A stretch of 64,000 bases of DNA from NCBI RefSeq assembly GCF_014698755.1, contig NZ_JACJTO010000001.1:62001-126000 (forward strand), in the 5' to 3' direction. A program made the translations under genes and the position numbers. The notes below the pieces were generated by a model. That model saw nothing but the letters and a program-made list of their open reading frames with translations. It was not told where the DNA came from and did not search any database. How positions within the stretch are numbered: position 1 is the first letter of the stretch; each line of letters begins with the position of its first letter. This document shows positions 41,974 to 46,923 of the stretch, in pieces. The DNA is from Aphanizomenon flos-aquae FACHB-1287. GTDB taxonomy: Bacteria; Cyanobacteriota; Cyanobacteriia; Cyanobacteriales; Nostocaceae.

Positions 41974-42225
41974 GTGAGAATCACAATTTCTGAACTAGAA
42001 CTTAGGATTTCAGAAGCGATTCTGGATGAACTAACTCCTTGGGAAATGAAAACTCTTAAGGGTGGTTACGTGATGAGAAAAGACAGAAGAAATCCGCCAA
42101 CAACCAATATAACCAATACAACTGATCTTTCAACAGTATTCAAAGAACTAGACAGTAGTATGGAAAGGTGGAAAATCAGCCTCAAAGATACAACAGATAG
42201 TCTAAGAAGCAAATTCGATTTTTAA
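41974..42225 (+). CDS. Putative RiPP precursor peptide 1 (double-glycine leader)
   Basis: This 83-residue peptide starts at GTG, supported by a perfect Shine-Dalgarno (AAGGAGGTGA). The leader MRITISELELRISEAILDEL continues TPWEMKTLKGG; the GG at residues 30-31 is a candidate cleavage site. The 52-residue core (YVMRKDRRNPPTTNITN onward) is very rich in Ser and Thr and has no Cys. A terminator follows, so it can be expressed separately from the other two peptides. It may be a substrate of the kinase/HopA1 pair at 43.2-45.4 kb, an inference. Confidence 0.6.
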   Translation: MRITISELELRISEAILDELTPWEMKTLKGGYVMRKDRRNPPTTNITNTTDLSTVFKELDSSMERWKISLKDTTDSLRSKFDF

Positions 42226-42260
42226 TATCTGCTGCGAAAAATCAAATATTTTACTTATTT

Positions 42261-42304
42261 TCGTGTGTTTTCAGATTTATTAACCTGAAGATACACGATT
42301 TTTT
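42261..42304 (+). terminator. Terminator after precursor peptide 1
   Basis: Arms CGTGTGTTTTCAG and CTGAAGATACACG pair almost fully and are followed by six T. It makes peptide 1 a separate or attenuated transcription unit. Confidence 0.7.
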
Positions 42305-42495
42305 ATGGAGGTTAATTCCACAATTTGCAGTTTTTATAAAAGACAGAATTGAGATATTTGTGTCTTTTTTACTAGGTTCAAAGCCTTGATTTTTCTATTT
42401 TTTATGAATAAAAATAGGAGTAACGGTTAAGGAAACACCAACTTAACCGACTCACAAATTCTAACTTACAAAAACAGATCTTCTTGGAGGAAATT

Positions 42496-42747
42496 ATGGC
42501 AAATATTACCCTTTCTCAACTAAATACAACTGGTTCTGAATTATTTGCAGATTCTGAAAGCTATCTTAATGAATTGAATGATGCAGCTTCTGTATCAATC
42601 AATGGTGGTGGTAGCGATTTCAGCGGTTTTAGTGCCTATGGTGACTTTGGTGTTAAATATCTAGAATTCTTAGTTGATGGCTATGCGATTGCTAGTATTA
42701 AGCATATCGCTAAATCCTTCAGCAATGATTCTCGCTACGTCCACTAA
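42496..42747 (+). CDS. Putative RiPP precursor peptide 2 (double-glycine leader)
   Basis: This 83-residue peptide starts at ATG 42496 with GGAGG 5 bases upstream. The leader MANITLSQLNTTGSELFADS followed by ESYLNELNDAASVSINGG is typical of cyanobacterial double-glycine precursor leaders. The core begins after residue 38: GSDFSGFSAYGDFGVKYLEF, then a hydrophobic LVDGYAIASIKHIAKSF stretch and SNDSRYVH. Several Ser, no Cys. The core is homologous to that of peptide 3 (about 12 of 25 aligned residues identical). Confidence 0.72.
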   Translation: MANITLSQLNTTGSELFADSESYLNELNDAASVSINGGGSDFSGFSAYGDFGVKYLEFLVDGYAIASIKHIAKSFSNDSRYVH

Positions 42748-42753
42748 TTACTT

Positions 42754-42777
42754 GGCTTTGTAGTTGACTACAAAGCC
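42754..42777. other. Perfect hairpin after precursor peptide 2
   Basis: GGCTTTGTAG and CTACAAAGCC form a 10-bp stem with a four-base loop just past the stop codon. No T run follows, so it may be an RNA stabiliser or processing signal, not a terminator. Confidence 0.7.
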
Positions 42778-42782
42778 GATAT

Positions 42783-42857
42783 AACTATCCAGGAGTCAAA
42801 GTAAAAACTAATCTATGTTATTTACATCAGATTGATTACTAATAATCCTGGATAGTT
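42783..42857. other. Long inverted repeat between precursor genes 2 and 3
   Basis: AACTATCCAGGA (42783-42794) is exactly complementary to TCCTGGATAGTT (42846-42857), with a 51-base AT-rich loop. It lies 46 bases before the third precursor gene. Confidence 0.75.
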
Positions 42858-42902
42858 AATAAAATTATAGATACAAAAATTAAATTTTTCTAGAGGTAAG
42901 AA

Positions 42903-43112
42903 ATGGCAAATATTATAATTTCTGACCTAGATAATGCTGATGAAAAAAAGTTTATTTTTAATCTAAATAATCTGGACAAGGCATCTATATTTGGAGGTGG
43001 ATATAATGATGTTAATCAAATACTTAATTATGGTATTAAGGCTCTAGAGTTTGTATTGGTAATTTATGCTATAGATAGTATTTCATTCTTAACGAAGACA
43101 TTTAAAAAATAA
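42903..43112 (+). CDS. Putative RiPP precursor peptide 3 (double-glycine leader)
   Basis: This 69-residue peptide starts at ATG after AGAGGT. The leader MANIIISDLDNADEKKFIFN is followed by LNNLDKASIFGG; the GG is at residues 31-32. The core is GYNDVNQILNYGIKALEF followed by VLVIYAIDSISFLTKTFKK, with Ser/Thr at the end of a hydrophobic segment and no Cys. Its MANI-DL leader start and its core match peptide 2. It sits 56 bases before the kinase gene. Confidence 0.72.
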   Translation: MANIIISDLDNADEKKFIFNLNNLDKASIFGGGYNDVNQILNYGIKALEFVLVIYAIDSISFLTKTFKK

Positions 43113-43168
43113 ATAATTTCCAACTTATCAACAATAGCAATTCTACACACATATTATTATCATTGCAA

Positions 43169-44335
43169 ATGATGCCATTCTTAATAAGTTCTACCAACGT
43201 TTTCAATTACCTAATTGAAAACAGAATTTGTCAGCCACAAGAGCAGCCATTAAGTAAAATAGAATTAAAATCCGCGAAAAATTTCAATTTATTAATTAGT
43301 TTACCAGATGGTCGTCAACTCCTAGTAAAACAAGAGCGTTATGATCAAAATGGTAAAACTTTAGGCGAATTTATAGATGAGTGGAGAATTCATGATTTTT
43401 GTCAAAAATTCCCAGAGCTAAATCATTTACCTTCATCTTTATCAGAAGTAATTCATTTTGATTTAGAAAACTCCATCATTGTTTTTAACTATCTAAATCA
43501 ATATCAAGATTTAGCGGAATTTTATGCCAAAGATCGGGAATTTCCTGCTGAAATTTCTCAGTTAGTTGGTACGACTATTGCAGCTATTCATCGCAAGACA
43601 ATAAACAATAAAAGCTATCAAAATTTCTTTGAAAATCCTCTAAAATCTCACAATATTATCAAAGGATTAGATAGAATTACACCACAAATATTTGGTCAAC
43701 TTCCGGCTGATGGTTTGAGATTTTTTGCTCTCTATCAACGTTACGATAATTTAGGAAAAGCAATTGTACAATTAAATCAGGCTTTTACTCCCTGTTGTCT
43801 CACCCATAATGATCTCAAACTTAATAATATTCTTTTATCTTTAAACTGGGAAACAGAACTTGAAGATAAATTACCTGGAAACAAAAATATCATCCGATTA
43901 ATTGATTGGGAAAGAGGCAATTGGGGAGATCCTGCTAATGATTTAGGCACAATAATTGCTAGTTATCTGCAAATTTGGTTATATAGCATAGTGGCTAATA
44001 AAACTATCCCTATTGAAGAATGTTTACGTTTAGCTGCTATTCCGTTAACAATGATTCAACCTTCTTTATCAACATTAGTTACTGGTTATTTAACTAATTT
44101 TCCAGAAATTTTAGAACTGCGTCCAGATTTCTGGCAATTAGTGATGCAATTTAGCGGTTTAGCTTTAATTAGATCTATTCAGGCTAGACTTCAATATGAA
44201 AAAACTTTTGATAATTCGGGTATTTGTATCCTCCAAGTTGCTAAGAGTTTATTGTGTCGTCCCCAAGCATCTATTTCCACAATTTTGGGGATGGAATTTT
44301 CAACAATAACTTCTAAAAATTTATCTCTTGTTTAG
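43169..44335 (+). CDS. APH-type kinase, putative RiPP Ser/Thr kinase
   Basis: This 388-residue aminoglycoside-phosphotransferase-fold kinase starts at one of two adjacent ATG codons. It has an N-lobe lysine in LLVKQERY (about residues 53-60), the catalytic loop HNDLKLNN (about 213-220, with Asp as base and Asn for Mg) and the DFG-equivalent IDWERGNWGDPANDLG (about 244-259). Kinases of this fold next to HopA1-like proteins phosphorylate Ser/Thr of RiPP precursors in class V lanthipeptide and thioamitide clusters (LxmK, TvaC). It precedes a HopA1 gene by 15 bases, so the same role is likely. An antibiotic-resistance role is unlikely in this context. Confidence 0.85.
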   Translation: MMPFLISSTNVFNYLIENRICQPQEQPLSKIELKSAKNFNLLISLPDGRQLLVKQERYDQNGKTLGEFIDEWRIHDFCQKFPELNHLPSSLSEVIHFDLENSIIVFNYLNQYQDLAEFYAKDREFPAEISQLVGTTIAAIHRKTINNKSYQNFFENPLKSHNIIKGLDRITPQIFGQLPADGLRFFALYQRYDNLGKAIVQLNQAFTPCCLTHNDLKLNNILLSLNWETELEDKLPGNKNIIRLIDWERGNWGDPANDLGTIIASYLQIWLYSIVANKTIPIEECLRLAAIPLTMIQPSLSTLVTGYLTNFPEILELRPDFWQLVMQFSGLALIRSIQARLQYEKTFDNSGICILQVAKSLLCRPQASISTILGMEFSTITSKNLSLV

Positions 44336-44350
44336 AAAAGGAAAGCTTGT

Positions 44351-45430
44351 ATGCAAGTATTAGATTCTATAAATAGTCAACTTTTCCAATTACCAAAAGA
44401 ATTACAAACAGCACTGCAAAATATTGTTGACAATCTGGAAATTGAATCATTTTATTCTATTAAGCATCCAGAATACAAATTACCAGAATTACCAGAATCA
44501 GTAATTGCTCGCTTTAAAAATTTATCCTTAGATATTCAAAATAAACACTTGAGTATGCAATTACGTAATTTTCTCTATAGTGCTTATTACAACGGTTCTT
44601 GGACTAATTCTCTTAATACTGACACCGAAATAAATAACTTCAGTAATAATAGCTTATTTGGCATGGATTTGGCGTTTTATGAAAAACTACATACAAGTAA
44701 TACAGGACGAGGATATTGGAGTGAAAATTGGTTAGTAGTTCATGAAGAAAATGATGGCTGTTTAGCAGTGCAGAAAAATGGTTTAACCTTGCATATTGAA
44801 CGGGATTTATATTTATCAGAAGTTGATAAATCAGCTAATGTTGGTAATTTAGTAGCAATTAAAATGCCTAAAAATCTAGTTCAAAATGGATTTTATATGG
44901 CAGTATCTAATCTGGGAACTCAAGACAATGAAGATATTGTCAGAATCTACTTTAACCTATCACCAGAAGGAGCAGTATCAGTGATGGAGAATGTGACTAC
45001 AGAACTCAATAATATGCAAGTTTCTTTCTCATTTAAAGCTCTATATAATCCTGATGAATATAGACGTTATGATTCGGCAGTTCTTTACTTTAATAAACAT
45101 CAATATAAAACAATTTATCCTATGTTACAACAGGTATATTCAGAAAATCAAGATAGTTTTTTCCCACAAGTACCGTTGTTTACTAAGCAACTAGCACCAG
45201 GATTAGGTTGTGCTGAAGAACCAACCAATAAGCTGGCAGAAAAAGAAAGTTTTGGGACTAATCGTTGTCAAATAATTGCTAATGGTTTAATTGCTGCTTG
45301 GCAAGCGGGCAATAATCATCCTGAAAGTCGAATGACAGCTATTTTGGAACAATTTACTTTACACAAAATCAAATTACGATATCCTTATCTTAATGGCTAT
45401 TCAGATGATATTTATACGACTTTAGATTGA
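44351..45430 (+). CDS. HopA1-family protein, putative phospho-Ser/Thr lyase
   Basis: This 359-residue protein has family blocks GRGYWSENWLVV (about residues 118-129), NGLTLHIERDLYLSE (about 144-158), NLSPEGAVSVME (about 205-216), YRRYDSAVLYF (about 237-247) and FTKQLAPGLGCAEEP...ESFGTNRCQIIANGLI (about 276-315). HopA1 was named after a type III effector. Relatives LxmX and TvaD are thought to eliminate phosphate from phospho-Ser/Thr to make dehydroalanine and dehydrobutyrine. It has RBS GGAAAG and is the last gene before a strong terminator. Confidence 0.88.
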   Translation: MQVLDSINSQLFQLPKELQTALQNIVDNLEIESFYSIKHPEYKLPELPESVIARFKNLSLDIQNKHLSMQLRNFLYSAYYNGSWTNSLNTDTEINNFSNNSLFGMDLAFYEKLHTSNTGRGYWSENWLVVHEENDGCLAVQKNGLTLHIERDLYLSEVDKSANVGNLVAIKMPKNLVQNGFYMAVSNLGTQDNEDIVRIYFNLSPEGAVSVMENVTTELNNMQVSFSFKALYNPDEYRRYDSAVLYFNKHQYKTIYPMLQQVYSENQDSFFPQVPLFTKQLAPGLGCAEEPTNKLAEKESFGTNRCQIIANGLIAAWQAGNNHPESRMTAILEQFTLHKIKLRYPYLNGYSDDIYTTLD

Positions 45431-45440
45431 TAATATCAAT

Positions 45441-45484
45441 ATCCCCGAATTCTTAGAGAATTCGGGGATCTCAAGTATTTTTTA
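45441..45484 (+). terminator. Strong terminator ending the peptide locus
   Basis: A perfect 13-bp stem (ATCCCCGAATTCT / AGAATTCGGGGAT) with a three-base loop, then a T run near 45478-45483. It lies 11 bases after the HopA1 stop. Confidence 0.85.
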
Positions 45485-46134: not shown

Positions 46135-46923
46135 TTAACTAGCTTCACTAAATATTTCTATGGGAGAAACAGGAGAATTTATTTCATCTCCTAATGTAGC
46201 CATAATTTCTAATTTATTAATTTGCTCTTTTAACCAATTAGTAAATAAATCTCCAAGAATCCCTACCCGGATTTGTTCATTCAATTGGGGGGCAATAATT
46301 TCTTCAACAATAATTATATGAACTCCCTTAGGTGTAGTTACTGGTTTAATCATTTCTGGGGGATTAGCTGCAAAAACTGCGGAAGCAACTTCTGGTCTAA
46401 AATCACTGCGTTTGCGGATACCTTGATATCCTCCAGCGCGACGGATTTCAGGATTTTGGATATATTGACGAGCTACTTCTTGAAAACTAATTTCCCCTTC
46501 TTGGAGAGCATAAAATATTTCTAAAGCTAGATCTTCATCATCTAATATCACTTCATAGGTAACTGCTCCGCTATAACTAATTTGATGAGCATAAAAAAAT
46601 GGTTCTATCTTGTCAGCAAATAAATGATGGGCTAATTTCGCAGATAGGAGATTAAGATTAGCTATTTCTTCAAAATTGTCTAAGGAAAGATAATGTTTTT
46701 TTAACCATTCCCATGTGTCATCTGCTTTAATTAGATTATTAACTAATCGTAAATTATCTGCGGATTGTTGTAATTCTGCTATTTCAATGCTAATACCTTC
46801 TTTTTTAGCTGTTTCTGTAATGATTTTCCTGGTGGCAATTGCCTCTAATAAACTAGGGATTTGACAGGATATTTTCAGATGATAAATAATATCTTCTTTG
46901 GATATTTTTAAAATATTTGACAT
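46135..46923 (-). CDS. Parvulin-like peptidyl-prolyl isomerase
   Basis: This 262-residue protein has an N-terminal SurA-like helical region (residues 1-115) and a rotamase domain (about 118-218) with AVTYEVILDD, EISFQEVARQYIQNPEIRRAGGYQGIRKRSDFRPEVASAVFA and TTPKGVHIIIVEE. No signal peptide is visible, so it probably acts in the cytoplasm. Such isomerases frequently lie beside peptide-export or double-glycine precursor genes in cyanobacteria. That, plus its position just beyond the kinase/HopA1 unit, suggests a role in precursor handling. Confidence 0.85.
   Translation of the reverse strand: MSNILKISKEDIIYHLKISCQIPSLLEAIATRKIITETAKKEGISIEIAELQQSADNLRLVNNLIKADDTWEWLKKHYLSLDNFEEIANLNLLSAKLAHHLFADKIEPFFYAHQISYSGAVTYEVILDDEDLALEIFYALQEGEISFQEVARQYIQNPEIRRAGGYQGIRKRSDFRPEVASAVFAANPPEMIKPVTTPKGVHIIIVEEIIAPQLNEQIRVGILGDLFTNWLKEQINKLEIMATLGDEINSPVSPIEIFSEAS

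What the first reader, a model, noticed from the sequence alone, without database searches (positions are those of the whole stretch)
41974..45484. Candidate new RiPP locus: three cysteine-free double-glycine precursors with an APH kinase and a HopA1 lyase
Seen: three small genes with strong ribosome binding sites and leaders ending in GG, then a kinase with HNDLKLNN and IDWERG motifs, then a HopA1-family gene 15 bases later, closed by a perfect terminator. Known: APH-type kinase plus HopA1 is the Ser/Thr phosphorylation-elimination pair of class V lanthipeptides (LxmK/LxmX) and thioamitides (TvaC/TvaD). Odd: none of the three precursors has a cysteine, and no LanC-like or LxmY cyclase, YcaO or radical SAM gene lies in the neighbourhood, so lanthionine or thioamide products are not expected. 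Inference: a cyanobacterial RiPP type carrying uncyclised or differently cyclised dehydroamino acids.
Basis: partly seen in the sequence, partly recalled or inferred. Interest (0 to 1): 0.9.

Follow-up and report, generated by a model that had tools for sequence, protein, structure and literature searches.

The report
Cyanobacterial dehydropeptide cluster without cysteines
This is a small gene cluster from a cyanobacterium that most likely makes secreted peptides in which serines or threonines are dehydrated by a kinase-lyase pair, but with no cysteines to form the usual rings; clusters of this kind have been predicted before, and no product was found in the papers searched.

Summary
Three real, Cys-free peptide genes with GG leaders precede an APH-fold kinase and a HopA1-family lyase. 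The kinase model's best solved-structure matches and the lyase's best profile match are the two chains of one complex, the lexapeptide dehydratase LxmKY; active-site residues are intact. All 80 related loci have a kinase match within 0.7 kb of HopA1, and a leader profile finds precursors in 77. Core Cys: 12 of 227 upstream peptides (28 of 274 at any position). No LanC or YcaO match in the genome.

'New RiPP type' is too strong: Eyles et al. 2021 (PMC8153245) described these precursors as cyanobacterial 'Family 1A', and the export genes match Wang et al. 2011 clusters. No product turned up in the papers searched.

Added here: (1) in the window's enzyme clade P1, P2 and P3 peptides recur, and 113 of 146 non-P1 peptides end in [KR]S[FY]S, against 0 of 74 outside; (2) the transporter operon, linked in relatives, sits on another contig; (3) a second kinase/HopA1 pair in the genome belongs to a clade (11 of 84 HopA1 places examined) lacking the essential lyase lysine and adjacent precursors, possibly a phosphorylate-only system.

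The parts
41974..42225 (+). P1: GG-leader peptide, 83 aa, GTG start; leader ends LTPWEMKTLKGG, hydrophilic core, no Cys
   Evidence: pN/pS 0.20-0.37 against 3 relatives; P1-type peptide present, and first, in 25 of 34 loci of the enzyme clade, rough pattern classes
42261..42298 (+). 14-bp RNA hairpin followed by ATTTTTT, between P1 and P2; likely terminator or attenuator
   Evidence: z -4.85
42496..42747 (+). P2: GG-leader peptide, 83 aa, leader GSELFADSESYLNEL...GG, core ends IAKSFSNDSRYVH, no Cys
   Evidence: (E 1.1e-18 to the leader profile)
42782..42858 (+). hairpin with 13-bp outer stem between P2 and P3
   Evidence: z -7.90
42903..43112 (+). P3: GG-leader peptide, 69 aa, last gene before the kinase; core shares the YAI..I..K(S/T)F end with P2, no Cys
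   Evidence: E 6e-8; P3-type in 27 of 34 loci, rough pattern classes
43163..44335 (+). APH-fold Ser/Thr kinase, LanK/LxmK-like; likely start ATG 43169 or 43172
   Evidence: NF038156 E 5.5e-21, 75 bits against a cutoff of 315; K56, E73, H215, D217, N222, D248 each in 80-82 of 84 aligned rows; first 3 PDB fold matches are LxmK chains
44351..45430 (+). HopA1-family phospho-Ser/Thr lyase, LanY-like
   Evidence: PF17914; R198, K229, Y246 in 81 and R239 in 83 of 84 rows; PDB 9dk1_B E 8.1e-10
45441..45469 (.). perfect 13-bp palindromic hairpin closing the operon
46135..46923 (-). PPIC-type prolyl isomerase (SurA-like), facing the operon; same place in L003, L005, L006, L008
   Evidence: family present in 66 of 80 related loci

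Best explanation
A split, three-peptide member of the cyanobacterial HopA1-associated 'Family 1A' RiPP clusters with a class V-type dehydratase. The kinase and HopA1 lyase form a two-subunit dehydratase that binds the conserved leader (inferred), phosphorylates core Ser/Thr (inferred from fold and residues) and eliminates phosphate to give Dha/Dhb (inferred). With no Cys in the three peptides and no LanC or YcaO match in the genome, lanthionine is not expected, so the mature peptides should carry uncyclised, or not thioether-cyclised, dehydroamino acids. The most likely P2 sites are the clade-conserved C-terminal Ser residues (KSFS). The leader is then cut at GG during export by the C39-peptidase ABC transporter and HlyD encoded on another contig, with the PPIC isomerase assisting (inferred from conserved linkage in relatives). 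Hairpins after P1 and P2 probably set more precursor than enzyme (inferred). Biological role unknown; the hydrophobic cores suggest membrane-active or signalling peptides (guess).
For: Kinase match 19-681 bases before HopA1 in 80 of 80 related loci (in L061 only the kinase's end is held); leader profile in 77 of 80. The two subunits match the two chains of the solved LxmKY complex, the lyase by sequence profile, the kinase by fold. The residues tested by mutation in CaoY (R187, K219, R229) and the conserved Y236 have counterparts at near-equal spacing. Purifying selection on all three peptides. P1/P2/P3 recurrence. C-terminal [KR]S[FY]S in 113 of 146 non-P1 peptides of the enzyme clade against 0 of 74 outside; shuffled cores reach at most 4 in 1000 rounds. 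Export operon on C21 with 90/83/93% identity to the copy linked in L006. No LanC, no YcaO match.
Against: No activity is shown. The kinase is far under NF038156's cutoff, and by sequence alone its match to the LxmK chain is not significant (E 2.1 single, 0.2 profile). PMC8153245 found no conserved core Ser/Thr over the whole family, so sites may vary, or KSFS may be an export or target motif. P1 has a different leader and may not be a substrate. In relatives 12 of 227 upstream cores, and 28 of 274 cores at any position, contain Cys, so lanthionine is not excluded family-wide. An unrecognised cyclase is possible.
Confidence: 0.68

Rival explanations
1. The pair dehydrates the cores and a not yet recognised enzyme then closes a non-thioether ring (for example Lys onto Dha, giving lysinoalanine) or reduces Dha/Dhb to D-residues. 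In other clades the aldo-keto-reductase-fold protein near HopA1 would be the candidate.
For: P2 and P3 cores hold conserved Lys as well as Ser (K54 in all 12 rows of A5). The reductase-fold gene occurs in 27 of 80 loci (two of them partial), mostly right behind HopA1. Against the recalled catalytic residues of that family it lacks the Asp and Lys at the aligned positions.
Against: The window's cluster has no such gene, and the L024 cores have no Lys. The reductase model is poor (mean pLDDT 58.3).
Confidence: 0.15
2. The peptides are unmodified class II-like GG bacteriocins or signals; the kinase/HopA1 pair acts on something else or only phosphorylates.
For: One relative's peptide gives a weak Bacteriocin_IIc hit (E 8.4e-4, 19.7 bits against a cutoff of 27.1). 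A paralogous pair exists without any precursor beside it.
Against: HopA1 genes that keep the residues RKRY lie within 6 kb of a leader-family peptide in 47 of 52 cases (42 of 52 on the same strand), which would be odd if the peptides were not substrates.
Confidence: 0.12
3. A decaying cluster: transporter separated, only three peptides left.
For: Transport genes are not beside it in the window, L003 and L005, whereas L006 and L008 keep them.
Against: The peptides are under purifying selection, both enzymes keep their catalytic residues, and the transporter operon is full-length on C21.
Confidence: 0.05

Closest known systems
HopA1-associated precursor Family 1A (Eyles et al. 2021, PMC8153245, section 16 read)
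   Same: cyanobacteria only, HopA1 plus phosphotransferase, several non-identical peptides, conserved GG leader, no conserved Cys
   Different: the paper reports no conserved core Ser/Thr over the whole family; the window's clade has a conserved KSFS end and recurring P1/P2/P3 types. The paper leaves the products as future work.
Class V lanthipeptides (lexapeptide LxmKY, cacaoidin CaoKY; PMC9486802 sections 6-7 read, PMC12141560 passages)
   Same: kinase and lyase folds and catalytic residues
   Different: no core Cys, no LanC match; LanX not searched for. PMC9486802 sets cyanobacterial precursors (type-B, collected with Cys required) apart from the type-A of the known products.
Cyanobacterial bacteriocin clusters of groups I/II (Wang et al. 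2011, PMC3140520, passages read)
   Same: long C39-ABC transporter, SurA-type rotamase, HlyD; a HetP-like gene lies before the C21 transport operon, a mark of group II
   Different: the word phosphotransferase does not occur in that paper's main text; in the window's genome the cluster is split over two contigs; the M16 peptidase of group II was not looked for in this genome
Thioamitides and kintamdin (PMC8153245, PMC10880069, passages read)
   Same: APH kinase plus HopA1 dehydration
   Different: no YcaO match in the window's genome, no Cys core

Membership tests
HopA1-associated Family 1A | HopA1 gene next to a phosphotransferase gene | tested here: met
   window; 80 of 80 related loci
HopA1-associated Family 1A | several non-identical GG-leader peptides with a conserved leader, cyanobacterial | tested here: met
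   P2 E 1.1e-18, P3 E 6e-8; P1 by its own profile, (it was among the seeds, as was P2). The published peptide list could not be matched directly.
Class V lanthipeptide | LanK-type kinase | tested here: met
   fold and residues; the NCBIfam equivalog cutoff itself is not reached
Class V lanthipeptide | LanY (HopA1) lyase with catalytic Arg, Lys, Arg, Tyr | tested here: met
   R198, K229, R239, Y246 (mapped by conservation and spacing)
Class V lanthipeptide | Cys in the core for lanthionine | tested here: not met
   0 of 3 window peptides; in relatives 12 of 227 upstream cores, 28 of 274 at any position
Class V lanthipeptide | LanX-type second APH protein or LanD decarboxylase in the cluster | tested here: inconclusive
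   none recognised among the ORFs beside the pair; two flavoprotein-family genes elsewhere in the genome; no LanX model was searched
Thioamitide | YcaO | tested here: not met
   0 matches in the genome
Group II cyanobacterial bacteriocin cluster | C39-ABC (long type), HlyD, SurA rotamase (shared with groups I and VI) | tested here: met
   rotamase in the window; ABC and HlyD on C21; linked in L006, L008, L018, L040
Group II cyanobacterial bacteriocin cluster | M16 peptidase genes | not tested
   present in 18 of 80 related loci; not looked for in the window's genome
any dehydroamino acid RiPP | dehydration of Ser/Thr shown by mass | not testable with these tools
   needs co-expression or extracts

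The most novel reading that the evidence does not exclude
Cyanobacteria have taken the class V RiPP dehydratase in two directions within one genome. The window's pair makes Cys-free three-peptide dehydropeptides with a clade-conserved C-terminal electrophile (KSFS to K-Dha-F-Dha). Its paralogue on C33 has lost the essential lyase Lys (Q or E in 11 of 11 members of one well-supported clade), keeps the kinase residues, has no adjacent precursor, and mostly sits in a fixed place beside DUF815 and TerB_C genes. It would be a kinase with a pseudo-lyase partner that phosphorylates a peptide or protein without eliminating phosphate.
Probability: 0.3. Interest if true: 0.75.

Novelty: new member of a known kind. 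Interest (0 to 1): 0.5.

Why it matters
PMC8153245 counted 183 such clusters in cyanobacteria, but no product turned up in the papers searched here. The window gives a compact test case of five short genes with an identified transporter operon and a predicted modification site. If the products are open-chain dehydropeptides, they would be a Dha/Dhb class without thioether rings and possibly reactive toward partner molecules. The lyase-deficient paralogue would show how a RiPP dehydratase can become a phosphorylation device.

Tried and rejected
A new RiPP class: rejected after reading PMC8153245 section 16. A hidden LanC or YcaO: no match in the genome. The class V equivalog model: kinase under its cutoff, so likeness rests on fold and residues. 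Conserved Ser in the core was first measured on a motif-selected set, which is circular; I redid it on a clade defined by the HopA1 tree (79 leaves, so two of the 81 sequences were missing). That clade's own support is 0.554; the next larger clade of 36 (support 0.997) has 113 of 158. Conserved small peptides beside the orphan pair: a first search was swamped by shadow frames of the large genes; restricted to 12 small ORFs with a ribosome-binding motif it found none shared and none with GG. The reductase-fold model was too poor to use (pLDDT 58.3); its PDB matches shown are aldo-keto reductases at TM about 0.3. Promoter scan: 22 found, 21.6 expected. Rfam: only a tRNA.

Counts against the reading: 3 of 80 loci have no leader hit (L063, L068, L080). 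The 227 upstream peptides with a cleavage site come from 60 of the 80 loci; other loci have leader hits downstream, and Cys is commoner there (28 of 274 over all positions, 12 of 227 upstream). 5 of 52 HopA1 places with RKRY have no leader hit, and 18 have only one; at E 1e-9 it is 42 of 52. Six HopA1 segments without the Lys still have a leader hit. Of the 95 HopA1 places, 11 short or weak ones were not fetched; of the 84 examined, 52 have RKRY, 11 R with Q or E, and 21 something else (distant or broken genes, some probably misaligned). The two collections overlap: L090 is the reverse complement of L004, and L052 and L053 are identical, so 79 of the 80 loci are distinct; both were counted.
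Full report
What is there. Searches show the three small ORFs, the kinase and the HopA1 gene at the stated places, in order on the + strand. None of the peptides has a Cys. Against near relatives the three peptides show pN/pS of 0.20-0.37 (10 comparisons), so they are genes. The surroundings are housekeeping: peroxiredoxin, a Fur-type regulator and a phosphoglucose isomerase. The nearest loci are Dolichospermum (87% identity for HopA1), so the genome is that of a related Nostocales cyanobacterium (inferred).

The enzymes. HopA1 matches PF17914 at 1.3e-59. PMC9486802 section 6 (read) names Arg187, Lys219, Arg229 and Tyr236 of CaoY; Lys219Ala stops elimination and leaves phosphorylated peptide. 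The window's lyase has R198, K229, R239 and Y246, with K-R and K-Y spacings equal to CaoY's (10 and 17) and R-K of 31 against 32 (my mapping by conservation and spacing). They hold in 81, 81, 83 and 81 of 84 aligned rows; the exceptions are second, tandem pairs in L052, L053 and L055. A 14-sequence profile finds PDB 9dk1_B at 8.1e-10. The kinase keeps K56, E73, H215, D217, N222 and D248 (80-82 of 84 rows). Its AlphaFold model (mean pLDDT 72.8) has 9dk3_A, 9dk1_A and 9dk2_A as its first three PDB matches, the kinase chains of the lexapeptide dehydratase complex (best E 1.6e-12, TM 0.65). By sequence alone that match is not significant.

The relatives. A genome-contig scan gave 149 relatives and kept 80 loci, 79 of them distinct. 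All 80 hold a kinase match 19-681 bases before HopA1 (in L061 only its end). A leader profile grown from 13 seeds out of these loci and the window finds 289 hits in 77 of the 80, 284 on the pair's strand and 237 within 6.5 kb upstream. Of 227 upstream peptides with a GG, GA or GS site (60 loci), 12 have a Cys in the core; over all positions it is 28 of 274. Neighbour families over the 80 loci: prolyl isomerase 66, C39-ABC transporter 53, HlyD 52, a helix-turn-helix protein 37, an aldo-keto-reductase-fold protein 27, M16 peptidase 18, HetP-like 11; flanks cut by contig ends make these lower bounds.

The window's clade. In a HopA1 tree of 79 leaves, 34 including the window form a clade (support 0.554; inside one of 36 with 0.997). 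There, P1-type peptides are present and first in 25 of 34 loci, P2 in 33 and P3 in 27; 21 have the full order with P1 optional (regular-expression classes, rough; several loci have little upstream DNA). Of 146 non-P1 peptides, 113 end with [KR]S[FY]S, in 33 of 34 loci; outside the clade 0 of 74 do; 1000 shuffles of the cores reach at most 4. Core Cys: 1 of 146 inside, 10 of 74 outside. This goes beyond the statement in PMC8153245 that Family 1A cores have no conserved Ser or Thr, which was made for the whole family.

Export. In L006 and L008 the operon is followed by isomerase, HlyD, C39-ABC and helix-turn-helix genes on the opposite strand. In the window, L003 and L005 only the isomerase is left there. 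In the window's genome the other three lie on contig C21, 90, 83 and 93% identical to L006's ABC, HlyD and helix-turn-helix genes, with a HetP-like gene before them. This fits the group I/II layouts in PMC3140520, the HetP-like gene favouring group II (passages).

Control of expression. Strong hairpins follow P1 (14 bp, then ATTTTTT) and P2 (13 bp outer stem) with z -4.85 and -7.90, which would favour precursor over enzyme mRNA; this is inferred.

The paralogue. The genome has a second pair on C33 (L083). In an order-level sample, 57 of 195 genomes hold 95 HopA1 places; 84 were examined. Of these, 52 have the residues RKRY at the four sites, and 47 of the 52 have a leader-family peptide within 6 kb; 11 have Q or E in place of the essential Lys with Arg198 kept, and 0 of the 11 do (46 and 0 at E 1e-6, 42 and 0 at E 1e-9). 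The 11 form one clade with support 1.0, so this is best read as one loss; the Fisher test ignores that. Nine of the 11, the C33 copy included, lie beside a DUF815 ATPase gene and a TerB_C gene, several also beside what I read as menaquinone genes (recalled, not searched). Kinase residues are intact in 9 of the 10 checked; L109 has N for D248 and L125 was not checked. Such a pair should phosphorylate without eliminating, if CaoY's behaviour carries over.

Prior work and novelty. Searches led to papers that predict the family but none seen that gives a product; three strings of the leader motif occur in no held paper. The held library lacks most subscription journals, and only the passages and sections named were read. 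I file the locus as a new member of a known, uncharacterised kind; the paralogous clade is the more surprising result.

Noticed in passing
L083 7754-10136 (contig C33 of the window's genome) and 10 further loci: Paralogous kinase/HopA1 pair whose lyase lacks the essential Lys (Q or E), without adjacent leader-family peptides, 9 of 11 beside DUF815 ATPase and TerB_C genes; one clade, support 1.0.
   Followed up: partly
L024 9098-10138, L045 9124-10143 and 25 other loci: Aldo-keto-reductase-fold gene near HopA1 in other clades, in L024 and L045 right behind it and followed by a second prolyl isomerase; lacks the usual (recalled) catalytic Asp and Lys at the aligned positions.
   Followed up: partly
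L178 1441-1617 (-) on C37 and L179 1501-1743 (+) on C78: Two stray peptides of the same leader family outside the two kinase/HopA1 contigs; one has a Gly/Tyr/His-rich core.
   Followed up: no
L114 2932-4251 on C15: A second C39-ABC gene of only 439 aa, apparently cut short, with GG-type small ORFs nearby.
   Followed up: no
L052/L053 (identical loci) and L055, second pair: Tandem second kinase/HopA1 pairs in which both kinase and lyase catalytic residues are altered.
   Followed up: no
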